Shown here in pieces: positions 444 to 36,256 of a stretch of DNA of 40,313 nucleotides. Under the pieces are notes generated by a model. That model saw only the letters and a program-made list of their open reading frames with translations. It was not told the DNA's origin and searched no databases. The position numbers and the translations under genes were made by a program. The stretch covers positions 1-40,313 of IMG/VR virus record IMGVR_UViG_3300020451_001732. The stretch is one strand, 5' to 3'. How positions within the stretch are numbered: the stretch's first letter is position 1; each line of letters opens with the position of its first letter. This DNA comes from a virus.

Positions 444-3400
444 ATGAGTTCAACAGAACGACAAAATAGTTTATTGGTCAACCAGGATTGGACCAAAATT
501 TATCAGACTTTTAAAAAGGCTGACTTTACTTCTTATGATTTTGACACCATAAGAAGAACAATGATTGCTTATCTCAAGGAAAACTATCCAGAAACTTTCA
601 ATGATTACATAGAATCTTCGGAGTATATTGCATTAATTGATCTAATTGCATACACGGCTCAAGCAATATCATTCAGAGTTGATTTGAATGCACGTGAAAA
701 CTTTATTGATACAGCATCAAGACGTGAATCAATCCTTAGACTTGCAAGATTACTCAGTTATGCACCAAAACGTAACCAAAATGCAACTGGATTTTTGAAG
801 GTTAATGCAATAGCAACCACAGAAAATGTAACAGATTCAGGCGGAATAGATTTAGCCAATACTGCTATTGTGTGGAATGATGCGGCAAACTCAAACTTTT
901 TAGAACAATTCACTGTAATATTCAATGCCGCTTTGGCATCTGGACAAAAATTTGGCAGACCTATACTGTCTGGCACAATAGGAAACATTGCCACAGAACA
1001 ATACAAGTTAGCAACCACAAACAATGATATTCCATTGTTTACATTTACCAGAAGTGTAAATGGTGTCACTATGCCTTTTGAACTAGTGCCAGCAACATTC
1101 TTAGGTGAAGATTTTATCTATGAAGAATCACCTATTCCATCTAACAATTTTTCAATGATATACAGAAACGATGGAGCAGGATTTGGATCAGCACTTACAG
1201 GATTCTTTTTGTATTTCAAACAAGGAAGTTTAGGAAGTGTTGATTTTAATATTGCTGAAGCAACATCTAACCAAATTGTAAATTTACCTTATGATAATAT
1301 AAATGACAATGATGTTTGGCTGTACAGTTTAACAGATTCAGGATTATTAGACACACAATGGACAAAAATTCCAAGTATTGCTGGTAACAACGTGATTTAC
1401 AATTCAGTCGCAGTAAACAACAGAAATGTTTATACCGCTGTGACAAAAGCAAATGACCAAGTTGACCTTACATTTGCTGATGGTACATTTGGAAACATTC
1501 CGTCAGGCAACTTCCGTTCGTATTACAGAACAAGTAATGGACTACAATATCAAATTGTGCCTGGAGATATGCAAGATGTAACTGTAGATATACCTTATGT
1601 AAATGCAGATGGACAAAATCACACATTAAGTTTTACAGCAAGTTTACAACAAACAATTTCAAACGCGACCACCGCTGAAACAAACGCTTCTATCAAAGTG
1701 TTAGCACCCCAAAGTTATTACACTAGTGATAGAATGATTACTGGAGAGGATTATCAGGTTGTACCATTAACAATCAATCAAAGTATTGCTAAAGTGCGTT
1801 CAGTAAACAGAGCAATCAGTGGTACAAGTAGATATTATGACTTGAAAGATGTCACTGGTGCATATTCTGCCACTTCATTAGTGTTAGATGATGGCTTAAT
1901 TTACAATGAGAAAACAAATCCAACCACAACATTTACATTTACAAGTTCAAGTGAAATTTTGACCTTTTTAAGAAATACCCTAAATCCAATTTTAGCAAGT
2001 AAAGGTTTATATAATTTTTACCTAAGTGAATATGCACGAAAATCAGGTGGTACAAGTAGGAAATGGAACCTAACAACATCAGCAACCAACACGTCAACAG
2101 GATATTTTTATGAAGAAGGTCCATTATCCACAGGCGAAGCCAGTACAACAAACTTAAAGTATGTAATTGTTGGATCCCTGCTTAAATTTATTCCACCAAC
2201 AGGCAAATTTTTCAAAGATGATGGTACGTTTACTTCAAATTCAACAGAAGGAAAAGAAATTTTATGGACCAAAGTAACAAAAGTAGTTGGTGATGGAAGT
2301 AATCAAGGTATAGGAAATTTACTTGACGGCACAGGACCTATTACACTTGCAGACATTGTGCCTGACACAGCACAACTGACAGAGATAGTGTACCCAATAC
2401 AGACTGCTTTGACCACAGCACAAGAGACAGAAATTATTGGATACGCAGAACAGCATCTAAACTTTGGTTTAAGATATGATCAAGATGTTGTAGGTGGTGG
2501 CACATACCAAACAATTACAAGTGTGAATTTATCTGCTAGTAATATTTTTGCTACATCATATGCAGGTAATACAAGTTCAGCAAATTTAGATGCTTCTTGG
2601 TTTATTAAATTTGCATCAGATGGTGAAACATACACAGTAACATATAGAAATTTAGATTATCTCTTTGAAAGTAGGGAAAAAAATAGATTTTATTTTGATG
2701 AGACTACAAAAATTTATGATTCGCAAACAGGTCGAACAGTAAAGGATTTAATAAAAGTGTTGAAATCAAATGCTGGACCAGATTCCACAACTTTAACACA
2801 GGATTACAATTTTGAAATTACAGGGAATGCAGTTGACCTCGACGGATACAATGACACTCGTAAAATGAAAATTGGATTTTTAGATACAGATGATGATGGT
2901 GCATTAGATGATCCAGATTCATTTACTTCTGTAGTAGCACCAAATGATAACCCTACACAGAAATATATATTCTTTAAGAAAAATGCAGGTAATGGATTCA
3001 ATCAATATGACTTTACAACTGATAACTTTGTTGTACGTGAACGTGAATCAGAAATTAGTTCACCTAGTGATTATGAAAATGGACAACTGTTTTATTTTTA
3101 TCATGAAGATGAAAATGCAGTCAAACAGTATGATTCAACAACAGGATTACTTACAGCAACAACAGAATATATTGCTAGACAAGGAAGATCAGATTTAATT
3201 TATCAATACAAACACGGAGCACCCAAAGACAGAAGAATTGATCCTAGTGTTAGTAACCTGCAAGAAATTTACACATTAACAAAAGCATATGACACAGAAT
3301 ATAGACAGTGGATTGATGGTGGACAAGAAGGAACAGAACCAAGTTCCCCGACAGTTGAAACACTAACCACTGCTTATTTGAAAGAACTTTCCACGAAACG

Positions 3401-3941
3401 TGCCATATCAGATGACATTATATTTGTTCCAATCAAATATAGACTACTATTCGGTTCCAAAGCAGAAGATGATCTACAAGCAACATTCAAGGTTGTAAAA
3501 AACCCTGATCTTGTTATAACAGACAACGAAATAAAATCATCAGTCATTGCCGCAATCAATGATTACTTCATCCTAGACAACTGGAACTTTGGTGACACTT
3601 TCTATTTTACAGAACTTGCCACTTATATTCACGGTGTGTTGGCTCCAAACATAGCATCAGTAGTAATTGTGCCAAAAAGTGCAGACAATTTCTTTGGTTC
3701 ATTGTTTGAAATAAGAGCAAACGCAGATGAAATTTTTATCAGTGGTGCAACTGTTGATAATGTTGAAATAATAGATAAACTAACTGCAACAAACTTACAA
3801 TCCACAGGATCAGTAGTTACTTCTACAACAGCCGCGGCTGGCACAGAAGCAGTTACTTCAGCAACAGGAACGTCAGTGTCTACAACCAGCACCACTACTA
3901 CAACATCGTCATCGTCAGGTAGTGGAGGCTCTGGTTATTAA
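444..3941 (+). CDS. 6: gp6-like baseplate wedge protein
   Basis: Baseplate wedge protein of the T4 gp6/baseplate-J type, which in T4 forms the inner ring linking wedges around the hub. The N-terminal ~125 residues carry the strongly conserved block: YDFDTIRRTMIAYLKENYPE, DYIESSEYIALIDLIAY, FRVDLNARENF and RRESILRLARLLSY. A second family-like block near the C-terminus (about 994-1119) includes FILDNWNFGDTFYFTELATY and a stretch ending in DEIFISGATVDNVEII. The protein is 1,165 residues against 660 in T4, so the middle is expanded. The last ~45 residues are a Ser/Thr/Gly-rich low-complexity tail ending GSGGSGY. A GGAGG at 3924-3928, inside the codons of this tail, can serve as ribosome-binding site for the next gene, which overlaps by one base. 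Confidence 0.9.
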   Translation: MSSTERQNSLLVNQDWTKIYQTFKKADFTSYDFDTIRRTMIAYLKENYPETFNDYIESSEYIALIDLIAYTAQAISFRVDLNARENFIDTASRRESILRLARLLSYAPKRNQNATGFLKVNAIATTENVTDSGGIDLANTAIVWNDAANSNFLEQFTVIFNAALASGQKFGRPILSGTIGNIATEQYKLATTNNDIPLFTFTRSVNGVTMPFELVPATFLGEDFIYEESPIPSNNFSMIYRNDGAGFGSALTGFFLYFKQGSLGSVDFNIAEATSNQIVNLPYDNINDNDVWLYSLTDSGLLDTQWTKIPSIAGNNVIYNSVAVNNRNVYTAVTKANDQVDLTFADGTFGNIPSGNFRSYYRTSNGLQYQIVPGDMQDVTVDIPYVNADGQNHTLSFTASLQQTISNATTAETNASIKVLAPQSYYTSDRMITGEDYQVVPLTINQSIAKVRSVNRAISGTSRYYDLKDVTGAYSATSLVLDDGLIYNEKTNPTTTFTFTSSSEILTFLRNTLNPILASKGLYNFYLSEYARKSGGTSRKWNLTTSATNTSTGYFYEEGPLSTGEASTTNLKYVIVGSLLKFIPPTGKFFKDDGTFTSNSTEGKEILWTKVTKVVGDGSNQGIGNLLDGTGPITLADIVPDTAQLTEIVYPIQTALTTAQETEIIGYAEQHLNFGLRYDQDVVGGGTYQTITSVNLSASNIFATSYAGNTSSANLDASWFIKFASDGETYTVTYRNLDYLFESREKNRFYFDETTKIYDSQTGRTVKDLIKVLKSNAGPDSTTLTQDYNFEITGNAVDLDGYNDTRKMKIGFLDTDDDGALDDPDSFTSVVAPNDNPTQKYIFFKKNAGNGFNQYDFTTDNFVVRERESEISSPSDYENGQLFYFYHEDENAVKQYDSTTGLLTATTEYIARQGRSDLIYQYKHGAPKDRRIDPSVSNLQEIYTLTKAYDTEYRQWIDGGQEGTEPSSPTVETLTTAYLKELSTKRAISDDIIFVPIKYRLLFGSKAEDDLQATFKVVKNPDLVITDNEIKSSVIAAINDYFILDNWNFGDTFYFTELATYIHGVLAPNIASVVIVPKSADNFFGSLFEIRANADEIFISGATVDNVEIIDKLTATNLQSTGSVVTSTTAAAGTEAVTSATGTSVSTTSTTTTTSSSSGSGGSGY

Positions 3942-3942
3942 T
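3930..3942 (+). repeat. 13-base direct repeat, copy 2 (end of gp6-like gene)
   Basis: Identical to bases 375-387. Here the repeat also contains the first two bases of the ATG of the giant structural gene (3941-3943). Confidence 0.6.
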
Positions 3943-6900
3943 GGCAACAACAACACGCAGAACATTAGATCAATTACCTCAAATTTTTCAAACAGATAAA
4001 AATAAGAGATTTTTAACATCTACACTGGATCAACTCACACAACCAGGTAAACTTACAAAAGTTGATGGATATATTGGGAGTAAAACTAGTAAAGTTTTCA
4101 AAAGCACAGACAGGTACGTCAAAGAAGGTACAGCAGATAGACAAGATTATCAACTTGAACCAGCAACAACCTATGTGGACAAAGATGGCAACGTAGAATT
4201 TTCATGTGATTATTTAGATTTAATAAACCAAGTGAAAACTTATGGTGGACATACAGAAAATACAACTGATGATATAAATCATAGCAGAATGTTTCAAGGA
4301 GAATCATATTCTTTTGCTCCTCCAATTGACCTAGATAAACTTGTTAATTTTAGAGAATACTATTGGATACCAAATGGTCCCGCACCTGTACAGGCAGATA
4401 TTACTCAACCAGGAGGAGTATCGACATACACCGTAAAAAATAATTCAAGAGGTGGTTACACATTTAATAATGATGGTATAACAAATCCTGTGCTTACATT
4501 GTACAGAGGAAACACATATAAATTTGAAGTCAATGCCCCAGGACATCCATTCTGGATTAAAACTGTAAACAGTCTTGGACAAGATGACGGTGTACAGGGT
4601 GGCTATGTGAACAATAACGGTGCTGAACAAGGTACTGTCGAATTTGAAGTTCCGTTGTTGACTGATGGATCAACTACACATCCTACAATTTTATATTATC
4701 AATGTCAAAATCATCAAGCCATGCATGGAACCATTGTAATAAGAGACTTAGATGAAACAGTAGTAACTCCTAACGTAACAAAAGAGATAGTCGGTAAGAA
4801 ATATTATCAAGCATCAAATGGAGTTAAACTTACAAATGGATTAAAAATTTATTTCAATGGCGCTCTTGATCCTGCTGATACATTAAAGACAACCAACAAA
4901 CAGTTTTATGTTGAGGGAGTTGGAGAAGCAATTAAACTTGTTGATGTAGACAACATTGTAAACACTTACAGTGAACTTGTTACACCAATTGGCTCACCAT
5001 GGGACGAAAATGGCATACAAGAGTTTGATACTTTTTATTGGGACGCACAAGATTACTATCCAAATAAACAAGATTATTTCACTATAAACAGATCAAGTAA
5101 AGATAATAATGCTTGGTCAAGATTGAATCGATGGTTTCACCGAGATGTAATCAAAGATACTGCCAAATATAACAGTGATTCAACAACTACAATTTTACCT
5201 TTTGAACTGGAAGAAAAATACAGAGCAAAAAGGCCAATTATAGAATTTGATGCTGACTTACAATTATATAATCATGGTTCGATCTCAAAAGACCCTGTTG
5301 ACCTTTTTGACATAAGAGAACAAGATGCATTTTCTAATATCAAAGGAAAAACTATTGCCTACGTTGATGGAATTGATCTACGTCAAGGTGATCGTGTTGT
5401 TTTTTCTGCAGACTCAGATCCAGACGTAAGAAATAAAATTTGGGTAGTAGATTATACAACCTTTGCATCATTAGACAGCACAGTACAAAGAAAGATAAAT
5501 TTAATAGAAGCAGAAGACTCATCAACAGTTCTTAATGGGCATAGTGTATTAATCAAAAGAGGTGTAAACTTAGAGGGTCTTACATATCATTTTGATGGCA
5601 CTAATTGGATATATTCACAGCAACATCTAGCAGTAAATGAAGCACCTAAATTTGAACTGTATGATTCAAACGGAATTGTTCTTAGCGACAATGATACATA
5701 TAGTGCCAGTAACTTTATTGGAAGCACAATCTTTGCTGTAAATGAATCAGACAACGGTACATTAGACACAGAATACGGCAAAACAATAACTTATTCAAGT
5801 CTAGGTACACAATCAGACATACAATTTGATAATAATCTTGCTTCAGGATTTTTCCAATATGCAGATGCACAAGGAAAATCCTTATTCACATATTACGATA
5901 CAACATTTTACAGAAAAAATCAAACATTAGAAGATGTAACATATGGTAACGGCTGGCAAAAATATTATAAAACTACAGACCAATGGATAAGTGACGTACA
6001 AATTGTTGGTGATGAAAAAGAACTGTTCCAAATTAGAAGTTTTTCAAAAGCCGCTTACATCACAGACTTAACTGTAAGAGTTTTTGTAAATGGCAAAAGA
6101 GTTATAGAAGGCACTGATTATTTCCTTACACGATCAGATCTAGATAGTACTGTACGTGGAGATTTATTTGTACAATTTTACACTTTGAGAAAAGCAGGTG
6201 AAACAATTACAATTAAATGTAAATCTGCACAAAGTAAAAATGGGTTTGGCAAATATGAGATTCCTTTTAATATAGAACGTAATGGATTGAATGAAAGGGT
6301 AAATTTATTTACACTACATGAACTAAATGATCATGTGTTGTCAATTACTGATTCACATCCAGACTATGTAGGCACACAGCCAGGTGCAGGTAATTTGAGA
6401 GATATCGATGTGCCAAAAACTTATGGTGAAAGAATAATGACTCATGAAGGCTCATTACCTTTAGCATCGTTTTTCTTAAAAGATCAAAAAGCAAATTTTA
6501 TATCAGCAATAAGATATACGGCAACAGAATATGCAAGATGGAAAAAATCTTTCTTGCAAATGGCAGTAGACCTGCCGTTTAGCGGTAGTGTAAAAGATCA
6601 TGTCGACACAATAATTGTTGAAATGAGCAAAACAAAAACCCCGATGTTTCCATTTTACTATGATGACATGGTCGGATATGGTCGTGACAGATCAGAAATA
6701 ACATACACTATTGTTGATCCTGATAATGAAGTTTATGCTATTAACTCAGTATTTGATACAAGCACACTATCAAAACGTGCATTATACGTTTATTACAAAG
6801 ACTTATATGACAATGAAAAACAACTTATACAAGGAAGAGACTATATCTTTGATACCAAAAACTCAAGTATAATAATGTTAAGTCAAACATCCGATTATGG

Positions 6901-9900
6901 TTGGAACACAACTAAATTTGAAATTGGCGGAACACTTACAATATATGATTACAACAACACAAACGGATCATACTTGCCACCAACACCAGCAAAACTTGGA
7001 TTGGCTCCTATGTCGATTCCATATATGTTTTCCGATGACACATATCAATCAACAGATAGTACTGCGGTAAGAGTTATAAAAGGTCACGATGGATCTTTAA
7101 CAAAAACTTATGGTGACTTGCGTGATGATTTATTATTAGAACTTGAATTAAGAATATACAACAATATAAAAGTATCATTGCGTGATGATTTTATTCCGTT
7201 AATACAGGAACCAGGAGTGTATAGGAAAGCAATCGGTGTAGAAAGTTATACAAGAGAAGAATATAATTTAGTTCTAGATGGAGAATTTTATGATTGGGTA
7301 GGTCGTAATGGTGTTGATTATGTAACACATGGCAACTATGATGACACAAATCAGTTTACTTGGAACTACTCACAATTGGGCAATAGCGTCGATGGGGAAA
7401 GACTACCAGGACACTGGAGAGGTGTGTACAAATATTTCTATGACACTGATACACCACATACAACTCCATGGGAGATGTTAGGATTCACAGAAAAACCAAG
7501 TTGGTGGGAAGGTAGATATGGTCCTGCTCCTTATACTAGAGGCAACACACTACTTTGGGGAGACTTAGAAAATGGACACATACATCAAGGATCAAGAGCA
7601 TCCAGTAAAAACAATGTGTTTAGACGTCCAGGTCTATCTAACAATATTCCTGTAGATGACAATGGAAATTTAACAGCCCCAAGAGATGCCGGCACAATAA
7701 GAGGATCAAGCACAAACATTTCACAAAGAAGTGGAGCGTGGAAGTTTGGAGATCATGGTCCGGCGGAAACTGCATACCGTAGATCATCTGAATATAAATT
7801 TGCTCAAACAATGGCGTGTGCTTTATTGTATCCAGCAAAATTCTTTGGCGAAACATTTGATGTTAGTAGATTAGTAACAAATGTGGCTGGACAATTAGTG
7901 TATAAAACTTCTGGTAGATTTATGGAGCCAAACAAACTAATTTTCCCTTACATCGATGAAAACAATGATGGGTCTGTGAATAGAACAGCAGGTTACATCA
8001 ATATTATTGCCAACTATATTAGAGCCATAAATGGTAATGTTATCAATGACATACAAACTCCTGTACATAATTTGTCTATCAGACTGATGTACAAAATGGC
8101 AGGATTCACAAACAAATCAAATTTAAAAATTATATCAGGAAGTACAAGTCCATTATCAACAGCAAGAAGTATTTTTATTCCTGAAGAAAACTATAAAATA
8201 TTCATGAACAAAAGTACACCTATCGACACAGTAAATTATTCTGCTGTAATTGTACAACGTGTGACAATGGATGATAGTTCAGCAGGTTATCAAATAAGTG
8301 GATACAATCAAGCAGAAAGATATTTTAAAATTTTACCAAGCAAAGAAAATAACAATGCAACTTCGATTACAGTAGGCGGTGCAACAGAACCATTCCAAGA
8401 TTGGGTATCAGGCGGATTTTATGCAAAAGATACAGTGGTTAGATATGTGAATGTATTCTATAGAGCCAAACGTGATATTGCATCATCATCAAACTTTGAT
8501 ACAAGTTTGTGGACTAACATGGGATCAAGATTGCCAGTTAGAGGCGGTACTAGAGCATTAATTTACAAAGATTTTATAAACATACCTGAAACTATTCCTT
8601 ATGGTACACAATATAGAAATGTAGAAGAAGTATTTGATTTCATAATATCTTATGGTAGATATTTAGAGTCGATTGGTTTTATATTCGACAGCATGACTCC
8701 GGATATTAATGAGCCAGCAGACTTCCTATTATCAGGTAAAGAATTTTTATTTTGGACACAACAAAACTGGGCACCAGGCACAACAATAACACTAAGTCCA
8801 TCTGCATACGAATTACGATATAAAAATACACAAGGGGTTGCAGACAGTTTAGTAAATCAATACAGACCATATCCAGTTTTAAACCAAAACGGTTTGGCAG
8901 TATCAACTAAAGATTTAAGCACAATACGTGAAAATGGTGTGTTTATTGTTAAAACAAATCCTGAGTCAACCGGACTTTACAATATCACTTTGGACATTGT
9001 GCAAAAAGAACACGCCTTACTGTTTGACAACAGAACGGTGTTCAATGACATACTTTTAGATTCAGCAATAGGATTCAGGCAACCAAGACTATTTGTAAGA
9101 GGTTTTAAAACAGATGATTGGAACGGTGATATGTATTCGCCAGGATTTATTTTTGATGAAGCAAGATTAAACACTTGGGAACAATATAAAGATTACGATA
9201 TAGGTACTGCGGTTATTTTCCAAGGAAAAAATTATACAGTAAAAACAAAACATACAAGTAATCAAAATTTTGATGCAACTAAATTTAATTTTAAAGAAGA
9301 TGCACCAAGATCGCAATTATTGCCAAACTTAGATTATAAAGCGGATCAGTTTAGAGATTTCTATGAACTTGAATCCGATAATTTCGATGCTGAACAACAA
9401 AAATTAGCACAGCATTTAGTAGGATATCAAACAAGATCATATTTAGAAAACTTAGATTTGGATGAAACCACACAATATAAATTTTATCAAGGATTTATAA
9501 AAGAAAAAGGCACAATAGACGCTGTAACAAAATTATTAAATGCCCAAGTATCTGACACAGCAAATTATTCTATATTTGAAGAGTGGGCATTTAGAGTTGG
9601 CCTATATGGTGGGCACAGAACACAAAAAATGTTGGAATTTGTAGTTGATGAATCTAAAGGTGCAGAACAGGTTGTGCCTGTAGAATTATTAGATGGTGGT
9701 ACAAACTATATTACAGGTTCAAATTCAGTACAGGTCCGACCGGAAGATATGTACAGTTCCGAAACAGATTATCTTGGTTCTCCTTTTCCTACTTATGAAA
9801 CTTCAAAAACACTAAGAGAGATTTTTAAGTATGATGTTGCAGGGTATGTGCGAGAAGATCAGGTTGACGCCACAGTAGTTACAAGTAATGAACTTGTAGA

Positions 9901-12900
9901 CTTAGATTCTTCTAACTTTGAAAACGGGTCATTGATCTGGGTTGGTACTTACAAAGATAATGCAAACAAAACAAATAATAATTCATGGGATGTTTTAAGA
10001 GTAACTGAAACTGATGTAAGACTAACTGATTATAAAGTTATAAATGACTCAACTATTAATTTTACAACCACTATTCCACATGGATTAGCAGAGAATGATT
10101 ATGTATTCATAACCGGAATGCTGGAAGAACTAGACGGTATCTATCAAGTTAAGGAAGAATTTGATTCTACATACAATCAAAAAGCATTTAGTATAAAATG
10201 GAATAGACCATATGTTCCTACTACACCGGCAGGAGGAGACAGTTCTGCAGGTTTACTGTTTACATTCAATTCAATCAGGTTGAATGATACATCAGAAGTT
10301 GCTGGTGCAACGCCACCTTTAGGTTGGAAAGATGGGGATAGGGTGTTCATTGATAATAATTGGGAAACTACACCAACCAAATGGGAAGTACTTCAAAAAC
10401 AATCACCATACACAGATCAAACAGGACAATTAATTTTAAAACCAAATGGACAAAGAAGTAATGTTCAATTTGGATCAGTGATTGTATCGCCTTCAAATTA
10501 TCTTGCCGCGGCAAGTGTCATGATTGGTGCTCCAGGAGATGCTAACGGAGGTAAGGTTTACATTTTTGGACGACCAATTGGAGAGAAATCAGTTTTAACA
10601 CCATTGCGAGAAATTTCATCTCCTATACCAAACAAAGTTGGTACAGTATTTGGCAATGATGATCAATTCGGTAAAGCCATAGCAACCAATGATGATGGTA
10701 CAGTTATGGCAGTTGGTGCTCCATCATCCAAAGATATTCTCAAAATAGTTTTGACAGGTGATAACAATGATAGCACAGATTATATTCTTGATACATATTA
10801 TCCAATTGGTGTAACAGTAACTGGTTCAGATTCCGGTGCGTCTGGCACAGTGATGAATTACAGAGAATACAACACCGAAGATTCAACTGTGGTTCAGCCT
10901 ATAATATATGTAAAGAACAATGGATCAACAAATTTTGTAGTAGGAGAGCAGTTATTAAGTCCAGATTCTGGTGCCACAAGAATTAAAGATATTGACAATG
11001 CTGATCATACAGCACAAGGATCAGTGGTAATATACACACTCCAAGACAACTCTTATCAAGTGAAAGATATAATTGCATCACCACAAGGGTTTTCAAATGA
11101 AGAATTTGGCGGAGGTGTAGCAGTATCTGATGATGGCAATTATATATTTGTTGGTGCTCCAGGACATAATAACCAACGGGGATGTATATACGTTTACAAT
11201 TACAAACAAGACTTTAGTTCAGAGCAATATGATTTCTTAACACAGATAACTCCTGATCAAGCGGTGAATGGTTTACGTTTTGGAGAAAATATCAAATCAG
11301 ACACCAACGGAACAAAATTAATTGTTTCATGTCCTAAATCAGACAATCCAAAAGGTGATTCAACAGCATCAGCAGGTAATGTATTCATTTATGCACGTGG
11401 CACAAACACAACAAGTGATTTTAAACGTGTGCAAATATTAACTGAAGGCGAAAGTGATTTCAGCACAGTACCTACAGAAAAAAATAGATTTGGACACAGT
11501 ATGGATATGTCTGCTAACGGTGATTATTTGTTTGTATCATCAGTAGAAGCATCAGACACTTTTGAAAATCAAGGTAAAGTGTATGTCTACAAAATAGAAG
11601 AGACTAAATTGCTATCAGATGGTACCACAAGAAGTTGGACATTGCCATTTAAAGGATCATACAGTAATATTAATGATTCAACAACAAGAACTGATACTTT
11701 TTGGATAACAGTTGACGGTGAAATATTAAATGCTAATGACGGGTCAACAGCAAGATATTATTCATTAGATGATAGTTCAAGCACAGTCTATATTAATATA
11801 AATGATGAAATTATTCCGCCTGATATCAACATAAGGTCGTTTAGATATGTTTTACAACAAACACTGATTGCAGAAGTGCCAAAAGCAAATGGCGGTTTTG
11901 GTGCATTTATTTCTGCTAATGCTAATGGCTCAGAAATTGGAATTGCTTCAGACAAAGGTGACCAAAAAGTATTCACCACATTCGATGTAAGATTCAGAGG
12001 TGATGACAGCACCGGTGCAGATGGAAGTACAACAACATATGACTTTGCAACAACATTTGATAAAGGCGCCACAAGGTTTAGTACAACAAAAGCAGAAACA
12101 GGTAAAGTTGAGATGTTTAGAAGATACAATGATTATTATCTTAAAGATCAAGACATTACATCACTAGATGTAAAAACTGGCGACGGATGGGGTGATGCTC
12201 TGTCAGTGCAAGAAGACTTTGTTTATGTTGGTGCACCTGGATTTGAACTAGAACTAAATGATTCTACTATACTTGATGCTGGTTTAGTAAAAGAGTATGC
12301 AAGGACTGGAGATTTAGTTTATGGTTGGACAACTGATGGTTATGCTGGAAGTACAAATGTAGACGGCACAGTTGGTAGTGCAGAACTTGTAAATCCTTAT
12401 AGAGTAACAAAAAATTATCTTTTTGATAAATCAACATCTAAAACTGTTCAATTCTTAGATTGGATTGATCCGGCAAAAGGAAAATTGCCAGGTGATGCCG
12501 CACAAGAAATAAAATATGAATCCCCATGGGATCCAGCAATTTACACAATTGGTGATGACAATGTTACAGTTCAAGAGACAAGATCATGGGGTGAAAAACA
12601 AGTTGGAGAATTATGGTGGGATCTCGAAGACACAAAATTTCAATATTATGAACAATACAATAACAATTACAAAAAAAATAAATGGGGTGCATTGTTTCCA
12701 GGTACAGAGGTCAAAGTGTATGAATGGGTTGAATCAGATCTGTTGCCAGAAAACTATACAACAATCAGTAACTCCACAGCAGGTCCAAGTTTAAACATAA
12801 CAGGATTACCTAAGTATGATAATACTGTATATGTAGAAAGATCTAAATTTAACAATCGTAAAGGTATATTTGAAACAAAATATTATTTCTGGGTCAATAG

Positions 12901-15900
12901 ACCAACGTCAGTTCCAAACACACCAGGCAGAACAATTAGTGCAGAAAGAGTAGCAAGACTTATTGAATCACCTCTTACAACTGGATATGCTTATGTTGGA
13001 ATTACAGGCAATAATGAATTATTTTATGCAAATTGTAGAGCCTTTTTAAGTGGTACAGATACAGTAGCACACCTAGAATATAAAACCGTAGATGATGCAG
13101 TAGATGAACATAACGAATGGCAACTAATGGCAGAAGGTGATCAAAACAGTCTACCGCCGGATACATTGACAGAAAAATTAATTGATTCGTTGATTGGTTA
13201 TGACAAATATGCACAGGTTGTTCCAGATAGAGACATTTCTGAATCAAGGAAATATGGAATAGAAGTAAAACCTGAACGACAGTCCATGTTTGTAAATAGA
13301 GCAGGTGCAACAGAAGCCTTCTTTATCGAAGTTAATAAAATTTTAGCAAAATACAAATTTGCTCAAGGTTTTGACTTATCTAAATTTAATCTGTTTGATC
13401 CTTATCCTAGTGCAATACTTAAAGAATACAATGAGCAAGTTGGTTCTTTTGCTGAATTGAGTTATATTAATACTGACACAGTCACAGACAAATACAAAGT
13501 TTTAGTTACAAATGATGAAACAGCAAATTCATTTTGGTCATTGTATGAATGGCAAGGATTTGGAGAGGATTCTGCAGGACTTGAATTAGGTTGGAGACGT
13601 GTTAAGACACAATCATATGATACAAGAATTTATTGGGATTACAAAAACTGGTATGCAGATGGATATAGTGACGAGAGTGCACCATCATACACAGTATCGA
13701 CTGTGGACAAAGTACCAACTGTTCCTGCTATTGTTGGTGATACTATCAAAATTACAAGAGCATTAAACGGTGAGTTTGAGTTAAGATTAAAAACAGAAGA
13801 TGGATTCGAAACTGTTGGCCTTGGTAACGGTACAATTACAATAAATGAAACTGCTTATGCATACTCAGAAGGTGCAATAGGGTATGACAGTGGAACATAT
13901 GATGCTACAAACTTTGATCAAGAACCAACCGTCGAGATCAGAAACCTAGTTGAAGGTATTGTGAGAGACTTGTTGACAGAAGAATTAGCAGTTGAATGGA
14001 ACCAACTTTGGTTTACAATGATTAGACGTATTTTATCCGAACAAAAATATGTTGATTGGATTTTGAGAACAGGATTCCTCAAAATTAATAATACATATTC
14101 TACACTGAACACAGATTTTGAATATAGAAATGACCCAATTGACTATGTGTTAAATTATATTAATGAAGTCAAACCGCTACACAGTCAAGTAAGAGATTAC
14201 ACAGTAAATTATTCGCAACTTGAAACAATGGGTATGGATGTCACAGACTTTGACATTGAACCATACTATGATATAGCACAAGGAAAAATAATTTCTCCTA
14301 CTTTTGATAATAATCCTGCCAAATTTAGTGAACAACCTTACAAAATATTTGCTGACAACTATACTAGATACGTTGGTGAAATTACTATTTCAGATGGCGG
14401 AGCGGGATATACAGAAAAACCTACGGTAACCTTTACAGCAGGTACAAAAAATATTCCTTCACTATACTTCAACACTGAATTAGTAACAAATTATTATTCA
14501 GTATATCATTTTTGGGTAAAATCAAATGGGATACCTGCACACGCAATAGGTGAAAACTTAGAAGTTCCTAGTTCACGTGCTAAAAAACGTAACTATCAAT
14601 TTAAAATTAAAAGATCACCGGAAGTTAGAACAAACAAAACAGATGCCATAGGATTTATTGGTGTAGCAACTAACGGAGTACCGTTCCATAGTGCAAAAGG
14701 TACAGAAATTAATACTACAATAGATAGTACAACTATGTACAAAGATGAATGGTTGGATAGAAAACAGGCAGGGTTCATTGATTCGACTAATGCAAGAATT
14801 AATGTAAATCAAAGTCGTGCTTACTACTACCTTGCAGATCCAGGATCTTTATACAGTAAATCATCAAGCACACACAGTTCGTTAATAGGATGGGCCTTTG
14901 ATGGTTATCCAATCTATGGTGCTTATGCTTATACAACTGCAATGGATTCTTCAAGTGCAATAAAATTAATGAAATCCTCTTACAGATTGAAAAGCGGTAC
15001 TAGAGCAGATGGCACAGCATACAACGGCACATACACAGATGATTATGAATATGTGGCAGGTCTGGGTGATCTCGACCAACACAACGGAAGAACCTGTGTT
15101 ACACCTGAATACACAGCAGGAACCTACGCATACTTTGTAACATTAGAAGATGATTTGACTCCGGAATATCCATATATAATTGGTCCGCAGTTTTATGGTG
15201 TGCCTCAATCACAAACTTATACAGAAAATAACAGATATGGTGCATTCATTGATGTTGATGAAGTACAATTAGAAACAGCCTCTCAGGCAAGGGCAACTGC
15301 TTATGTTTCGGCTGGTGCTATTTCAAGAGTAATTGTAGACTATACAGGTAGTGGATACACACAAACACCAACAATTACAATCACTGGAGGAGGTACTGGC
15401 GTCACAAGAACTGCTAAATTATATGCACAACTTGAAAATGGAAAAGTTCGAGAGTTTGATACTACACTTGCATTTGATAGAATTAAAGGCACAAATGAAC
15501 TTACTACAAAGACTATTGTAGATTGGGAAATAAACACATCATACACAGCAACACAGAATGTAAGATACAATAATAGGATTTACAGAGTAACCACAGCATT
15601 TACAAGTTCTAATGTGTTCGATGATACTAATTTAGAAAGATGGCACGCGGCAGATAGAATATTCACATATTATGAACCAGGTGTTGGAATGCCAGGGTTA
15701 ATGGGAGATGGTTCTTCTAGTCCAGAATCTTATGCACAATTAATGAGTGGATTGGAATACGGAGGTGTACAAGTACGTTCAATCAAATTTGATACAGGTT
15801 CAAACTATGATATAGGAAGTGGATTTGATGCAGGCAAATATGATGCAGGTGTAATATCAGATGACACAGACACATACGCAGATTATGACACAAAACTTGA

Positions 15901-18900
15901 AGGTGGAAAATTTAATACTGATGTTGGCATCCGACCAGAAGAAATAATTGTACAGGGCGATGAATTCCAAGGAAATGAATACAGTACCTATGCACCAGAA
16001 GAAGTGGTTCCTGGTATAACATTTGATACTGTTGACATACAAGTTTATTCTAAACCAGCAGATGGTGGGCCACTTGTAGATATAAACACATTTATTGGTG
16101 ACGGATCAACTACAACGTTCTCTTTGACATTACTTCCGCAGACTGATGAAGCAATTTTTGTTTACAAAAATAATCACTTGTTGGATAATATACATGATTC
16201 AACTGCAACGCATTTTACAATAGATTATCCAAATAAAACAATAACATTTACAACTGCTCCAGCAGTAAATGATTACATTATGATACAAACATTTAGCACA
16301 GGTGGTGCTAATGTTGTCAATCAAACCACAGCAACTGGAGATGGATCAACTACGGTGTTTAATGTGGCAGGTGCAATTAACCGTGTGGGAAGAGCCTATG
16401 TTACTGTGAACGGAGCCAAAACAACTGTGAGTATTTCAGATGCTGGTGATAGTTCAAGTGTGAACTTGACTTTCAGTTCAGCACCAGCGGCAAATTCTGT
16501 TATACAAATTTTATTGACAGACACAACAACTAAAACATTTAATGAAGTAAAAACTGAAACATTCTTGTTTGACGGATCAACTGAAACTTACGTTTTACAA
16601 TCACCGCCTTCTTCAGCACCTCCTTTCCATTCAGCGGCTATTGTTACAAGAAATAATTTAAGACTTGTTCCGCCTGACACAGCATATTACACTGGTGATG
16701 GATCATCTACAATATTTGCTATTCCAACAGATCCAGCAGAAAGACAAAATATTGTGCAAGGTGATATTGAAGCACACATAAATGGTATAAGACAACAAGT
16801 AAATGCAGATTGGACATATGACACGTCAACATTCCAAGTAACATTTACATCAACACCGGCAGATGGTGATGCTATTGCAATCACAACCAAATCAGGACAT
16901 GATTACACAATCGACTCAACATCATTGAACTTGAATACAGGACAAGGAGGCTTTACTGCAGGTGACGTCATTAAAGTTACAACATTCTCAAATCATGATG
17001 AAATGCATATTGAAACGCAAGTGTTCAGTGGTGTAAAAAACACAGCGGCATTTTATGGTGCAAACAACTCTGCATCACAAATACTAAATGTTGGCACTGG
17101 CGGAAAACTTATTGACACATTCGAAACTTCGCAGAAGAAAGCAGTTCAATATCAAATTACAGCATTAGGATCAGATGGCAATACACAAATAGAAACACTG
17201 ACAGTATTGTCAGATGGAACCAACGTATTTTTAACATCACTAGGTAGAGTGTTTACTGGTTCAACTAAAACAATAGAATACGCATCAAGTATAGCAGGGT
17301 CAACGGTATCTATCACAGGTACAACATCAAGTGGCACAGCAGATGTAAGATTTTGGCAGACACACTTAGATGAATCTACTGTGGCAGTTAGTGGTACAAA
17401 TGAGGCAGTCATTGCTGTAGATATGAACGACAGTTCTGCAACTGTGGTGGATACAACAACAGATAACACTAGCCAAGCAACATATTTTTATTATGCTAAA
17501 GGTGATGTTGATGGACATGAATCAGGGTATGTGACTTTCCATTTTGATGGGACCACTGCAAATACAACACACTATGGCATCTTAAATACACAGGCCACTC
17601 AGTTTATGACATTTACTGGTGCCATGTCAGGTAGCACGGCCCAACTTAAAGCATCAACAGATGATCCAACTACATTGTTAAAAATGTACAGGGTGGCTTT
17701 GAGTTCTACAACTTCAACTTTCCAAGATGAAGGATCTAAGTTTTTTGCTCCTCAAACTGTGAGTGGTTCTGCAACAACACTTGACACAATACCGCAAGGC
17801 ACAACAAGTGACATATATCAATCTGCAATTTATTATTATTCTGCTGTGATTGGCGGTGGCGGTGACAGAGAAACAGGAATACTTACACTGGCGGCAAATG
17901 GACTAACTGCAAACATTAACCAATTTGGTATATTGACTAGTGATGAGCCTGCAAGTACAAGTTTATTAACATTCAGTGCAAGTATAGTTGGCACTAATGC
18001 TGTGCTTTCTTGTGCAGAAACATCATCCACAACTGCAAGTGTGACATTGTACAGAGTAGGCTATGACCAGGCACTACAGATTGAGCAACAAGTTTCAAAC
18101 ACTTACACGATGAGCAACATTATTTCTAACACAAATTACCTTTGGGTAACCTACAACGGAGAAAGATTAGTACAAGGTGTAGACTTCAGTGTAGAAGATG
18201 ACTCAAAAACAATTTCAATTCCTACACCAAGATTTGTAACAGATGGATCAAGTGTAGACAGAGTGGTAGTCACAGCAATCAGCACAGACAGACTAGCACC
18301 TGCAACAGGATTTAGAATTTTTAAAGATATTTTGGACAGATATCATTACAAACGTATTGCAAAAGCAAACATTACGGAACTATCTAGTCCATTACTGATT
18401 TCTGACACGACTATTTCAGTGCGTGACGGAAGTGTGTTGGCGACGCCTTCAACAACTTACCCAGGGGTTGTGTTTATCGATAAGGAAAGAATCGAATACA
18501 GCACAAAAGATGGGAATACACTATCAAATATTCGAAGAGGTACCTTAGGAACCGGAGCCAAAGCGAATTATATAAGTGGAACAGAGGTTGTTGATGCGTC
18601 GACCAACCAAACAATACCAAATTCAGGTGATGCAATTACAACAGACACATACACAGGTGATGGATCAACCACATTCTTTGACCTTACAACACAACCTGCA
18701 GAGGCAGATGAATTGACAGTATTTGTGTCTGGAGTGAGATTGCGTAGATTGAATGATGATTCAAGTGCTAACTATACCGTTGGTGGCGATAGTGCGAGAG
18801 GAATCACGTTTACAACTGCACCAACCAGTGGCAGAATTGTCAAAATACAACACAAAACAGGACAGATTTGGTATGATAACGGAACTGATCCTGCCACTGC

Positions 18901-18982
18901 AACAAATGCCAAAGGTATGCAAAATGCAACTTCGGTACCGGCTAAATTCTTACTTGATGGTGAGTCAAGATTGCCGAAATAA
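3941..18982 (+). CDS. Giant multidomain virion structural (baseplate/tail) protein, 5,013 aa
   Basis: Very large virion protein directly after gp6, in the position where T4 carries the wedge genes 7, 8 and 10. I do not recognise it as a homologue of any one of these. Segments in order: N-terminal phage-type region; cupredoxin-like domain at ~158-269 with a possible type I copper set His202, Cys255, His258, Met261; long unassigned region; seven FG-GAP-like repeats at ~2178-2785; two GxGYTxxPT repeats near 3481-3502 and 3797-3819 flanking a YHYH-like domain (~3507-3753, with GWAFDGYPIYGAY near 3650); an APEEVVPGITFDTVDIQVY motif near 4020 that is common in marine myovirus structural proteins; GDGSTT-type modules from ~4052; and an IEYS...IRRGTLGTG motif near 4850. 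The start overlaps the gp6 stop by one base. The frame is open for 15 kb without interruption. A virion role is inferred from position and domain style. Confidence 0.85.
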   Translation: MATTTRRTLDQLPQIFQTDKNKRFLTSTLDQLTQPGKLTKVDGYIGSKTSKVFKSTDRYVKEGTADRQDYQLEPATTYVDKDGNVEFSCDYLDLINQVKTYGGHTENTTDDINHSRMFQGESYSFAPPIDLDKLVNFREYYWIPNGPAPVQADITQPGGVSTYTVKNNSRGGYTFNNDGITNPVLTLYRGNTYKFEVNAPGHPFWIKTVNSLGQDDGVQGGYVNNNGAEQGTVEFEVPLLTDGSTTHPTILYYQCQNHQAMHGTIVIRDLDETVVTPNVTKEIVGKKYYQASNGVKLTNGLKIYFNGALDPADTLKTTNKQFYVEGVGEAIKLVDVDNIVNTYSELVTPIGSPWDENGIQEFDTFYWDAQDYYPNKQDYFTINRSSKDNNAWSRLNRWFHRDVIKDTAKYNSDSTTTILPFELEEKYRAKRPIIEFDADLQLYNHGSISKDPVDLFDIREQDAFSNIKGKTIAYVDGIDLRQGDRVVFSADSDPDVRNKIWVVDYTTFASLDSTVQRKINLIEAEDSSTVLNGHSVLIKRGVNLEGLTYHFDGTNWIYSQQHLAVNEAPKFELYDSNGIVLSDNDTYSASNFIGSTIFAVNESDNGTLDTEYGKTITYSSLGTQSDIQFDNNLASGFFQYADAQGKSLFTYYDTTFYRKNQTLEDVTYGNGWQKYYKTTDQWISDVQIVGDEKELFQIRSFSKAAYITDLTVRVFVNGKRVIEGTDYFLTRSDLDSTVRGDLFVQFYTLRKAGETITIKCKSAQSKNGFGKYEIPFNIERNGLNERVNLFTLHELNDHVLSITDSHPDYVGTQPGAGNLRDIDVPKTYGERIMTHEGSLPLASFFLKDQKANFISAIRYTATEYARWKKSFLQMAVDLPFSGSVKDHVDTIIVEMSKTKTPMFPFYYDDMVGYGRDRSEITYTIVDPDNEVYAINSVFDTSTLSKRALYVYYKDLYDNEKQLIQGRDYIFDTKNSSIIMLSQTSDYGWNTTKFEIGGTLTIYDYNNTNGSYLPPTPAKLGLAPMSIPYMFSDDTYQSTDSTAVRVIKGHDGSLTKTYGDLRDDLLLELELRIYNNIKVSLRDDFIPLIQEPGVYRKAIGVESYTREEYNLVLDGEFYDWVGRNGVDYVTHGNYDDTNQFTWNYSQLGNSVDGERLPGHWRGVYKYFYDTDTPHTTPWEMLGFTEKPSWWEGRYGPAPYTRGNTLLWGDLENGHIHQGSRASSKNNVFRRPGLSNNIPVDDNGNLTAPRDAGTIRGSSTNISQRSGAWKFGDHGPAETAYRRSSEYKFAQTMACALLYPAKFFGETFDVSRLVTNVAGQLVYKTSGRFMEPNKLIFPYIDENNDGSVNRTAGYINIIANYIRAINGNVINDIQTPVHNLSIRLMYKMAGFTNKSNLKIISGSTSPLSTARSIFIPEENYKIFMNKSTPIDTVNYSAVIVQRVTMDDSSAGYQISGYNQAERYFKILPSKENNNATSITVGGATEPFQDWVSGGFYAKDTVVRYVNVFYRAKRDIASSSNFDTSLWTNMGSRLPVRGGTRALIYKDFINIPETIPYGTQYRNVEEVFDFIISYGRYLESIGFIFDSMTPDINEPADFLLSGKEFLFWTQQNWAPGTTITLSPSAYELRYKNTQGVADSLVNQYRPYPVLNQNGLAVSTKDLSTIRENGVFIVKTNPESTGLYNITLDIVQKEHALLFDNRTVFNDILLDSAIGFRQPRLFVRGFKTDDWNGDMYSPGFIFDEARLNTWEQYKDYDIGTAVIFQGKNYTVKTKHTSNQNFDATKFNFKEDAPRSQLLPNLDYKADQFRDFYELESDNFDAEQQKLAQHLVGYQTRSYLENLDLDETTQYKFYQGFIKEKGTIDAVTKLLNAQVSDTANYSIFEEWAFRVGLYGGHRTQKMLEFVVDESKGAEQVVPVELLDGGTNYITGSNSVQVRPEDMYSSETDYLGSPFPTYETSKTLREIFKYDVAGYVREDQVDATVVTSNELVDLDSSNFENGSLIWVGTYKDNANKTNNNSWDVLRVTETDVRLTDYKVINDSTINFTTTIPHGLAENDYVFITGMLEELDGIYQVKEEFDSTYNQKAFSIKWNRPYVPTTPAGGDSSAGLLFTFNSIRLNDTSEVAGATPPLGWKDGDRVFIDNNWETTPTKWEVLQKQSPYTDQTGQLILKPNGQRSNVQFGSVIVSPSNYLAAASVMIGAPGDANGGKVYIFGRPIGEKSVLTPLREISSPIPNKVGTVFGNDDQFGKAIATNDDGTVMAVGAPSSKDILKIVLTGDNNDSTDYILDTYYPIGVTVTGSDSGASGTVMNYREYNTEDSTVVQPIIYVKNNGSTNFVVGEQLLSPDSGATRIKDIDNADHTAQGSVVIYTLQDNSYQVKDIIASPQGFSNEEFGGGVAVSDDGNYIFVGAPGHNNQRGCIYVYNYKQDFSSEQYDFLTQITPDQAVNGLRFGENIKSDTNGTKLIVSCPKSDNPKGDSTASAGNVFIYARGTNTTSDFKRVQILTEGESDFSTVPTEKNRFGHSMDMSANGDYLFVSSVEASDTFENQGKVYVYKIEETKLLSDGTTRSWTLPFKGSYSNINDSTTRTDTFWITVDGEILNANDGSTARYYSLDDSSSTVYININDEIIPPDINIRSFRYVLQQTLIAEVPKANGGFGAFISANANGSEIGIASDKGDQKVFTTFDVRFRGDDSTGADGSTTTYDFATTFDKGATRFSTTKAETGKVEMFRRYNDYYLKDQDITSLDVKTGDGWGDALSVQEDFVYVGAPGFELELNDSTILDAGLVKEYARTGDLVYGWTTDGYAGSTNVDGTVGSAELVNPYRVTKNYLFDKSTSKTVQFLDWIDPAKGKLPGDAAQEIKYESPWDPAIYTIGDDNVTVQETRSWGEKQVGELWWDLEDTKFQYYEQYNNNYKKNKWGALFPGTEVKVYEWVESDLLPENYTTISNSTAGPSLNITGLPKYDNTVYVERSKFNNRKGIFETKYYFWVNRPTSVPNTPGRTISAERVARLIESPLTTGYAYVGITGNNELFYANCRAFLSGTDTVAHLEYKTVDDAVDEHNEWQLMAEGDQNSLPPDTLTEKLIDSLIGYDKYAQVVPDRDISESRKYGIEVKPERQSMFVNRAGATEAFFIEVNKILAKYKFAQGFDLSKFNLFDPYPSAILKEYNEQVGSFAELSYINTDTVTDKYKVLVTNDETANSFWSLYEWQGFGEDSAGLELGWRRVKTQSYDTRIYWDYKNWYADGYSDESAPSYTVSTVDKVPTVPAIVGDTIKITRALNGEFELRLKTEDGFETVGLGNGTITINETAYAYSEGAIGYDSGTYDATNFDQEPTVEIRNLVEGIVRDLLTEELAVEWNQLWFTMIRRILSEQKYVDWILRTGFLKINNTYSTLNTDFEYRNDPIDYVLNYINEVKPLHSQVRDYTVNYSQLETMGMDVTDFDIEPYYDIAQGKIISPTFDNNPAKFSEQPYKIFADNYTRYVGEITISDGGAGYTEKPTVTFTAGTKNIPSLYFNTELVTNYYSVYHFWVKSNGIPAHAIGENLEVPSSRAKKRNYQFKIKRSPEVRTNKTDAIGFIGVATNGVPFHSAKGTEINTTIDSTTMYKDEWLDRKQAGFIDSTNARINVNQSRAYYYLADPGSLYSKSSSTHSSLIGWAFDGYPIYGAYAYTTAMDSSSAIKLMKSSYRLKSGTRADGTAYNGTYTDDYEYVAGLGDLDQHNGRTCVTPEYTAGTYAYFVTLEDDLTPEYPYIIGPQFYGVPQSQTYTENNRYGAFIDVDEVQLETASQARATAYVSAGAISRVIVDYTGSGYTQTPTITITGGGTGVTRTAKLYAQLENGKVREFDTTLAFDRIKGTNELTTKTIVDWEINTSYTATQNVRYNNRIYRVTTAFTSSNVFDDTNLERWHAADRIFTYYEPGVGMPGLMGDGSSSPESYAQLMSGLEYGGVQVRSIKFDTGSNYDIGSGFDAGKYDAGVISDDTDTYADYDTKLEGGKFNTDVGIRPEEIIVQGDEFQGNEYSTYAPEEVVPGITFDTVDIQVYSKPADGGPLVDINTFIGDGSTTTFSLTLLPQTDEAIFVYKNNHLLDNIHDSTATHFTIDYPNKTITFTTAPAVNDYIMIQTFSTGGANVVNQTTATGDGSTTVFNVAGAINRVGRAYVTVNGAKTTVSISDAGDSSSVNLTFSSAPAANSVIQILLTDTTTKTFNEVKTETFLFDGSTETYVLQSPPSSAPPFHSAAIVTRNNLRLVPPDTAYYTGDGSSTIFAIPTDPAERQNIVQGDIEAHINGIRQQVNADWTYDTSTFQVTFTSTPADGDAIAITTKSGHDYTIDSTSLNLNTGQGGFTAGDVIKVTTFSNHDEMHIETQVFSGVKNTAAFYGANNSASQILNVGTGGKLIDTFETSQKKAVQYQITALGSDGNTQIETLTVLSDGTNVFLTSLGRVFTGSTKTIEYASSIAGSTVSITGTTSSGTADVRFWQTHLDESTVAVSGTNEAVIAVDMNDSSATVVDTTTDNTSQATYFYYAKGDVDGHESGYVTFHFDGTTANTTHYGILNTQATQFMTFTGAMSGSTAQLKASTDDPTTLLKMYRVALSSTTSTFQDEGSKFFAPQTVSGSATTLDTIPQGTTSDIYQSAIYYYSAVIGGGGDRETGILTLAANGLTANINQFGILTSDEPASTSLLTFSASIVGTNAVLSCAETSSTTASVTLYRVGYDQALQIEQQVSNTYTMSNIISNTNYLWVTYNGERLVQGVDFSVEDDSKTISIPTPRFVTDGSSVDRVVVTAISTDRLAPATGFRIFKDILDRYHYKRIAKANITELSSPLLISDTTISVRDGSVLATPSTTYPGVVFIDKERIEYSTKDGNTLSNIRRGTLGTGAKANYISGTEVVDASTNQTIPNSGDAITTDTYTGDGSTTFFDLTTQPAEADELTVFVSGVRLRRLNDDSSANYTVGGDSARGITFTTAPTSGRIVKIQHKTGQIWYDNGTDPATATNAKGMQNATSVPAKFLLDGESRLPK
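10474..12260 (+). repeat. Seven FG-GAP-like repeats within the giant protein
   Basis: Seven degenerate repeats carry a phenylalanine/glycine start and a GAP-like end. Examples are FGKAIATNDDGTVMAVGAPS, FGGGVAVSDDGNYIFVGAPG, RFGHSMDMSANGDYLFVSS and GWGDALSVQEDFVYVGAPG. Repeats begin near residues 2178, 2243, 2388, 2446, 2516, 2651 and 2750. FG-GAP repeats form seven-bladed integrin-type beta-propellers, so seven copies fit one propeller. They are unevenly spaced, with insertions between blades. Confidence 0.65.
16090..18720 (+). repeat. Five dispersed GDGSTT-type modules in the giant protein's C-terminal fifth
   Basis: The signature GDGSTTTF or a near variant recurs near residues 4052, 4132, 4208 (FDGSTETY), 4250 (GDGSSTIF) and 4902 (GDGSTTFF). 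Most copies are followed by a beta-rich stretch with a short VxVNG- or VFVSG-like segment. This looks like a repeated small beta-domain of appendage proteins. Confidence 0.55.
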
Positions 18983-19000: not shown

Positions 19001-19132
19001 ATGAATAATGAACCAAATAAAGAAGAGAAGAAAACACCCAAATTGGATGAAAATTCAGGGGTTTTAGTAGAAGGATTCATAGAAATATCTGACCCAGAAA
19101 CAGGTGAGATTATTCTACAACGGAGAGATTAA
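19001..19132 (+). CDS. 43-aa protein resembling the N-terminal piece of the next structural protein
   Basis: Short ORF: ATG at 19001, TAA at 19130-19132. Its stop shares one base with the next ATG, and its 3' end holds that gene's GGAGAG ribosome-binding site, so the two look translationally coupled. The N-terminal half is charged and rich in Lys and Glu. The second half, VEGFIEISDPETGEIILQRR, aligns by eye with IRGFIKISDVTDVNNPEILV at the start of the following protein: Gly-Phe-Ile-x-Ile-Ser-Asp, a short turn, then Glu-Ile-x-x-Gln. It therefore looks like a stand-alone copy of the head of that family, or the remnant of a duplicated gene. Its own ribosome-binding site is weak (TGAGA at 18989-18993). 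Function unknown. Confidence 0.7.
   Translation: MNNEPNKEEKKTPKLDENSGVLVEGFIEISDPETGEIILQRRD
19122..19127 (+). promoter_or_regulatory. Ribosome-binding site for the gene at 19132
   Basis: GGAGAG lies 4 bases before the ATG at 19132, inside the last codons of the 43-aa ORF. This supports the chosen start and translational coupling of the pair. Confidence 0.6.
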
Positions 19133-36139: not shown

Positions 36140-36256
36140 ATGATTAACACAATCAAACAGTGGTGGAAAAACGTAATGTTCAAGCGGAAGGCCCGCAAAG
36201 AATTTAAGAAAAAAATGAAAGAACTTAAAAAACGTGACCCATTCATCTATCACTGA
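36140..36256 (+). CDS. Small basic protein, 38 aa
   Basis: Short ORF from ATG at 36140 to TGA at 36254-36256. It starts one base after the SGNH hydrolase stop and overlaps the methyltransferase start by 23 bases, so it fills what would otherwise be the only gap of this block. The product is extremely basic and helical: MINTIKQWWKNV, a Lys/Arg-rich helix, and the ending LKKRDPFIYH. I recall small marine-phage proteins ending in a similar KKRDPFIY motif, which favours a real gene over chance, but this is memory rather than a search. The Trp pair and charge suggest binding to nucleic acid, membrane or an acidic protein. Function unknown. Confidence 0.65.
   Translation: MINTIKQWWKNVMFKRKARKEFKKKMKELKKRDPFIYH

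What the first reader, a model, noticed from the sequence alone, without database searches (positions are those of the whole stretch)
3941..18982. A 5,013-residue virion protein with cupredoxin-like, FG-GAP and YHYH-like domains
One uninterrupted 15 kb frame in the position of T4 genes 7/8/10. It joins a small cupredoxin-like domain, a seven-unit FG-GAP region and a YHYH-like domain flanked by two GxGYTxxPT repeats. These are domains of secreted or adhesion proteins, so this may be both a baseplate part and a host-contact protein. It is far larger than any T4 wedge protein.
Basis: partly seen in the sequence, partly recalled or inferred. Interest (0 to 1): 0.62.

Follow-up and report, generated by a model that had tools for sequence, protein, structure and literature searches.

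The report
Giant phage baseplate protein with cupredoxin
A bacterial virus related to known jumbo phages makes one 5,013-residue protein that sits where the tail-end baseplate wedge is built; such giant proteins are already known, but this one carries a small domain shaped like blue-copper proteins with all four copper-holding residues intact, which also occurs in lab-cultured cyanophage tails and appears not to have been described.

Summary
The ORF is real: 3941-18982, 5,013 aa, uninterrupted, directly after gp25 and gp6. The size is ordinary for its family. Homologues lie directly after gp6 in jumbo phages (PA5oct 3,857 aa, Phosso 4,555, Atu_ph07 4,449, RaK2 3,326, CBB 3,340; PA5oct's and CBB's found in virions by others), and 45 complete IMG/VR relatives span 3,676-5,160 aa. 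It is a conserved ~2,600-residue wedge scaffold with variable modules. The named modules check out, with corrections. (1) Residues ~154-274 are predicted to have a cupredoxin fold (rusticyanin, Z 10.5), with the complete type-1 copper set H202/C255/H258/M261; relatives keep it whole or lack C, H258 and (but one) M. The domain also sits in cyanophage tail proteins (7 of 8 checked keep the set) and in marine bacterial proteins; the five isolates lack it. I found no paper describing it. (2) Seven FG-GAP units, general in the environmental branch, absent from those isolates. (3) A YHYH-family domain, a rare insert (4 of 85 relatives) that has lost the YHYH histidines, so the published hydrolase prediction probably fails here. 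T4 gp7 similarity is undetectable. Best reading: a gp7-position wedge organiser displaying surface-contact modules. Copper binding is predicted, not shown.

The parts
3941..18982 (+). giant wedge-position virion protein, 5,013 aa
   Evidence: single ORF; phrog_10938 E 5e-257; homologues after gp6 in jumbo phages
6..386 (+). gp25-like baseplate wedge subunit
   Evidence: Pfam GPW_gp25 E 9e-9
444..3941 (+). gp6-like baseplate wedge subunit, 1,165 aa
   Evidence: phrog_10646 E 2e-299, phrog_219 E 5e-19
3941..4390 (+). conserved N-terminal scaffold block, aa 1-150
   Evidence: 31-39% identity to RaK2, PA5oct, Atu_ph07, SCTP-2, Phosso
4400..4762 (+). inserted cupredoxin domain, aa 154-274
   Evidence: predicted model Z 10.5 to rusticyanin; absent in the five named isolates
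4544..4546 (+). predicted Cu ligand H202
4703..4723 (+). predicted Cu ligands C255, H258, M261 (C-x2-H-x2-M loop)
4778..9871 (+). conserved scaffold block, aa 280-1977
8381..8533 (+). CBM5/12-like module, aa 1481-1531
   Evidence: fold match Z 6.9 over 45 residues
9173..9268 (+). second CBM5/12-like module, aa 1745-1776
   Evidence: Pfam 24.9 bits, just below the curated 26.2; profile A3
10469..12241 (+). seven FG-GAP units, aa 2177-2767
   Evidence: Pfam FG-GAP_2 E 9e-14; unit positions
12326..14398 (+). conserved scaffold block, aa 2796-3486
14399..14425 (+). first GxGYTxxPT motif, aa 3487-3495
14597..15154 (+). YHYH-family domain without the YHYH motif, aa 3553-3738; rare insert
   Evidence: Pfam E 2e-42; motif lost; in 4 of 85 relatives
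15347..15373 (+). second GxGYTxxPT motif, aa 3803-3811
15524..15607 (+). weak CBM5/12-like module, aa 3862-3889
   Evidence: Pfam E 9e-4, below the curated cut-off
16094..18982 (+). C-terminal region with GDGST-type repeats (aa 4052, 4132, 4251, 4905)
   Evidence: C-terminus shared with relatives
19132..19743 (+). syntenic 203-aa protein, possible wedge partner
   Evidence: 36-54% identity to PA5oct gp357, Atu_ph07 gp177, Phosso 293, SCTP-2 139

Best explanation
The gene encodes the gp7-position baseplate wedge organiser of a RaK2/PA5oct-type jumbo phage. A conserved scaffold (aa 1-150, 280-1977, 2796-3486) joins gp6/gp25 to form each baseplate wedge. Modules inserted between scaffold blocks (cupredoxin, FG-GAP units, YHYH-family domain) and the C-terminal repeats project from the rim and touch the host envelope or other tail parts. 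Shown here: family, synteny, block-and-insert structure, predicted cupredoxin fold and the intact ligand set. Inferred: incorporation in six-fold copies (wedge symmetry), outward display, host contact. On the copper site: the most likely step is that the cupredoxin domain binds one Cu ion, as its marine bacterial relatives probably do, and that the bound metal stabilises or tunes a binding surface; redox use is less likely.
For: Homologues directly after gp6 in PA5oct, Atu_ph07, RaK2, Phosso and CBB, and after a large upstream ORF in SCTP-2; a long ORF ends just upstream in 76 of 79 loci. CBB gp236 was found in virions with 21 peptides (PMC5259590); the PA5oct gp355 record notes ESI-MS/MS. Core identity 24-39% to isolates, with inserts confined to set places. 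Cupredoxin fold: Foldseek probability 0.99-1.00 and only blue-copper-type proteins among the 50 hits shown; Z 10.5 to rusticyanin. Ligand set kept or lost as a block. The same domain with the ligand set is in cyanophage tail-fibre or gp9-like connector proteins and in marine bacterial proteins, two of them with lipoprotein-like N-termini.
Against: No solved structure matches the scaffold beyond the small CBM-like module, and T4 gp7 is not detectably similar, so the gp7 role rests on position. The window is a 40-kb fragment, so a separate gp7-like gene elsewhere cannot be excluded. Virion presence is shown only for distant homologues that lack the cupredoxin. Most family members that carry the domain (47 of 67) have lost the ligands, so copper is not essential to the family. 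The copper state changes only about 3 times on the tree, so independent support for co-loss is thin (2 independent starred pairs).
Confidence: 0.75

Rival explanations
1. The protein is not a wedge organiser but a giant tail-fibre or adhesin-type protein that merely sits next to gp6; the wedge uses another, unseen gp7-like protein.
For: No similarity to T4 gp7; many modules are adhesin-like; the fragment does not show the whole genome.
Against: The scaffold, not only the modules, is conserved across very different phages and always placed after gp6; the list of T4 homologues in CBB passages read includes gp6, gp25 and gp53 but no gp7, gp8 or gp10 (PMC5259590).
Confidence: 0.15
2. The copper ligands are an inherited relic: the domain is a structural beta-sandwich spacer and copper plays no part in the virion.
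For: 47 of 67 domain copies in the family lack the ligands yet keep the domain; five environmental relatives and the five isolates lack the domain altogether.
Against: In the clades that keep it the set is complete in 19 of 20 copies at 40-53% pairwise identity to the window, and 7 of 8 cyanophage copies keep it; a relic would be expected to decay piecemeal.
Confidence: 0.35
3. The giant ORF is an assembly artefact or fused reading frame.
For: Metagenomic fragment.
Against: 45 distinct complete relatives of 3,676-5,160 aa in other samples and isolates with single ORFs of 3,326-4,555 aa.
Confidence: 0.01

Closest known systems
Giant virion protein after gp6 in RaK2/PA5oct/CBB/Atu_ph07-type jumbo phages (phrog_10938)
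   Same: Position after gp6, homologous core aa 1-150, 280-1977, 2796-3444, single very long ORF
   Different: The five isolates compared lack the cupredoxin and FG-GAP modules and are shorter (3,326-4,555 aa); no YHYH-region similarity to them was seen
T4 gp7 (1,032 aa)
   Same: Gene order: directly follows gp6; expected wedge role
   Different: No detectable sequence or profile similarity (hhalign probability at most 0.4%), five times longer
Cyanophage S-SSM4 CYXG_00059 (6,932 aa, after gp6)
   Same: Giant protein at the same position; shares the YHYH-family domain and GxGYT-type repeat region
   Different: Scaffold not homologous by BLAST
Rusticyanin, small laccases, Cu nitrite reductase (cupredoxins)
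   Same: Predicted fold and H/C/H/M ligand set; C-x2-H-x2-M spacing as in amicyanin (from my own knowledge)
   Different: Inserted in a phage virion scaffold; Pfam cupredoxin models do not reach significance
Cyanophage gp9-like tail-fibre connectors (phrog_677)
   Same: C-terminal cupredoxin-type domain with the same ligands
   Different: Separate, much smaller proteins with the domain at the C-terminus, not inserted

Membership tests
RaK2/PA5oct giant wedge-position protein family | lies directly after a gp6-type gene | tested here: met
RaK2/PA5oct giant wedge-position protein family | homologous core | tested here: met
   phrog_10938 E 5e-257; BLAST E down to 5e-147
RaK2/PA5oct giant wedge-position protein family | present in the virion | not testable with these tools
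   shown for CBB gp236 (PMC5259590) and noted for PA5oct gp355
T4 gp7 | sequence or profile similarity to gp7 | tested here: not met
   hhalign probability 0.2-0.4% for three scaffold profiles
T4 gp7 | gp7 fold and (gp6)2-gp7 core bundle | tested here: inconclusive
   model of aa 1001-1995 has no whole-fold match in PDB; other scaffold blocks not folded
Cupredoxin / type-1 copper protein | cupredoxin beta-sandwich | tested here: met
   predicted model: 2cal Z 10.5, 2.2 A over 96 residues; 769 of 998 chains with Z at least 5
Cupredoxin / type-1 copper protein | His, Cys, His, Met ligands in order and spacing | tested here: met
   H202, C255, H258, M261
Cupredoxin / type-1 copper protein | binds Cu, absorption near 600 nm | not testable with these tools
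   needs the recombinant domain
FG-GAP beta-propeller | about seven FG-GAP units | tested here: met
   seven units; Pfam E 9e-14
FG-GAP beta-propeller | propeller fold | not tested
YHYH domain (PF14240) | profile match | tested here: met
   146 bits against cut-off 25
YHYH domain (PF14240) | YHYH motif and predicted metal-binding histidines | tested here: not met
   AYYY in place of YHYH; HSSLIGWAFDG kept
CBM5/12 (chitin-binding type 3) | curated score and fold | tested here: inconclusive
   24.9 against 26.2 bits; fold match Z 6.9 over 45 residues

The most novel reading that the evidence does not exclude
Many marine tailed phages, including cultured cyanophages, carry a blue-copper (type-1 Cu) centre in their tail or baseplate, used during host contact or triggering; virions would be copper proteins and part of the marine copper budget.
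Probability: 0.25. Interest if true: 0.85.

Novelty: new variant of a known kind. Interest (0 to 1): 0.5.

Why it matters
This work splits one into scaffold and exchangeable modules, and shows that one module is a predicted cupredoxin with an intact copper site shared with cultured cyanophage tail proteins. That makes a simple question testable on lab phages: do phage virions carry copper, and does it matter for infection? There is a precedent for metal in tails: proposed iron-binding domains in an Alteromonas phage tail fibre (PMC11705849, abstract seen).

Tried and rejected
T4 gp7 homology by hhalign with single and multi-sequence gp7 profiles: nothing. Whole-fold search of scaffold aa 1001-1995 in PDB and BFVD: only CBM5/12-like modules stand out in PDB, and the best BFVD hits are members of the family. 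Assembly error as the source of the giant size: rejected by dozens of independent full-length relatives. Systematic splitting of homologues: rejected; the one split case, L065, is a single frameshift with continuous similarity. Exceptional size: rejected. A phmmer scan with the whole FG-GAP stretch found only 4 of 85 relatives and was misleading; the Pfam unit model finds 42 of 49. A scan of genome contigs with alignment A2 failed for lack of a conserved stretch, so a single sequence was used; its bait included ligand residues, so the 11 of 11 ligand count in cellular copies is biased. The gp9-based scan, whose bait excluded the domain, gave 17 of 18 copies with the set (the other is truncated), but many of these loci are close relatives. 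Literature search for a tail cupredoxin found nothing relevant; the library holds only open-licence papers, so absence there is weak evidence.

Full report
What is there. The frame 3941-18982 is a single open ORF of 5,013 codons, 557.5 kDa and pI 4.7, with steady codon-position composition along its length. It starts at the stop codon of a gp6-like gene (444-3941), which follows a gp25-like gene (6-386). The window is an IMG/VR viral fragment of 40,313 bp, so the rest of the genome cannot be checked.

The giant size is a family trait. tblastn against phage records finds homologues immediately after gp6 in jumbo phages: PA5oct gp355 (3,857 aa), Atu_ph07 gp180 (4,449), RaK2 gp465 (3,326), Phosso 294 (4,555), CBB gp236 (3,340), and SCTP-2 gp140 (3,807, after an unnamed large ORF). 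The PA5oct record notes ESI-MS/MS detection, and CBB_236 was found in virions with 21 peptides and 7.7% coverage (PMC5259590). The PHROG family is phrog_10938, E 5e-257. Among 80 loci fetched, 45 distinct complete ORFs span 3,676-5,160 aa, median 4,645. Of 53 complete ORFs one is split, by a single frameshift. 76 of 79 loci have a long ORF ending within 150 nt upstream, nearly all of gp6 size. Cyanophage S-SSM4 has an even larger protein after gp6, 6,932 aa, whose scaffold is not homologous by BLAST but which shares the YHYH domain and the GxGYT-type repeat region.

Architecture. Aligned to relatives, the protein is a conserved scaffold (aa 1-150, 280-1977, 2796-3486, and parts of the C-terminal third) interrupted at set places by modules: (a) aa ~154-274 cupredoxin; (b) aa 2177-2767 seven FG-GAP units; (c) aa 3553-3738 YHYH-family domain between two GxGYTxxPT motifs; (d) small CBM5/12-like modules at aa 1481-1531, 1745-1776 and weakly 3862-3889; (e) C-terminal GDGST-type repeats. 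FG-GAP_2 matches 42 of 49 aligned members, and the corresponding interval of the five named isolates has no Pfam match. YHYH occurs in only 4 of 85 relatives, at the same place. The cupredoxin interval is filled in 67 of 77 N-termini and empty or unrelated in the five isolates.

The cupredoxin. An AlphaFold2 model of aa 139-286, built from 19 window and IMG/VR sequences, has mean pLDDT 77. Foldseek's listed PDB hits are all blue-copper-type proteins, probability 0.99-1.00; VIA-align gives rusticyanin 2cal Z 10.5, 2.2 A over 96 residues, then two-domain laccases and copper nitrite reductase. The four type-1 copper ligands are H202, C255, H258 and M261, spaced C-x2-H-x2-M. Of 67 copies in this family 20 have C/H/M; 19 of those have the first His; of the other 47 none has C255 or H258 and one has the Met. 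On a tree of the scaffold the state changes about 3 times and the window sits in a clade that keeps the ligands, so the co-loss rests on few events.

The domain elsewhere. 285 phage records, nearly all cyanophages, hold it, in gp9-like connectors (phrog_677) and tail fibres. P-SSM2, Bellamy, S-SSM4, P-TIM68, P-SCSP2, P-GSP1 and MA01 keep H/C/H/M; S-B43 does not. A scan baited with a gp9 region outside the domain gave 17 of 18 copies with the set, the other truncated. Marine bacteria carry it at 39-52% identity, in two cases in proteins with lipoprotein-like N-termini, and 11 of 11 complete copies keep the ligands, with a bait bias. I found no paper describing a cupredoxin in a phage tail. Copper binding itself is not shown.

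The YHYH domain. The Pfam match is strong (E 2e-42), but AYYY stands where relatives L015, L034 and L061 have YHYH, and the preceding HPQ-type histidine is gone. Iyer et al. (PMC7824862) predict a Zn-dependent hydrolase from conserved histidines and an aspartate; in this copy that prediction probably fails and a binding role is more likely (inference).

Relation to T4. T4 gp7 follows gp6 and has 1,032 aa. Profile comparisons of three scaffold blocks with 16 gp7 sequences give probabilities of 0.2-0.4%. A model of aa 1001-1995 (pLDDT 76.5) has no solved whole-fold match; its best BFVD matches are members of its own family. So the protein occupies the gp7 position and very likely works as a wedge organiser, but membership in the gp7 family is not established.

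Verdict. The new element is the copper-competent cupredoxin, testable on cultured cyanophages.

Noticed in passing
window 28754-35407: Five consecutive ORFs with similarity to radical SAM families (some weak), followed further on by a methyltransferase (36234-36800) and a NodU-like carbamoyltransferase (36797-38278). Radical SAM genes also follow the baseplate block in Atu_ph07 (gp171) and Phosso (290).
   Followed up: partly
window 28754-31532: ORFs 28754-30196 and 30096-31532 overlap by about 100 nt, both listed with TTG starts; true starts probably lie further in.
   Followed up: no
window 19132-19743: 203-aa protein of unknown function (phrog_11259), 36-54% identical and syntenic across PA5oct, Atu_ph07, Phosso and SCTP-2: a possible unrecognised wedge component.
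   Followed up: partly
window 19749-21833 and 22928-24484: Two downstream proteins share an N-terminal domain of about 80-130 aa with PA5oct gp358/gp359 (gp358 annotated gp10-like); probably tail pins or fibres built on a common attachment domain.
   Followed up: partly
L121-L124, L126, L127: Marine alphaproteobacterial contigs (Rhodobiaceae, PS1 clade, OCS116 and others) hold proteins of about 430 aa with the same cupredoxin-type domain towards the C-terminus and a shared N-terminus; function unknown.
   Followed up: no
L065:13061: Giant ORF broken by one frameshift with continuous similarity on both sides; sequencing error or real split not decided.
   Followed up: yes
L118:12788-33586: S-SSM4 CYXG_00059: 6,932-aa virion protein after gp6 with a scaffold unrelated to this family by BLAST.
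   Followed up: partly
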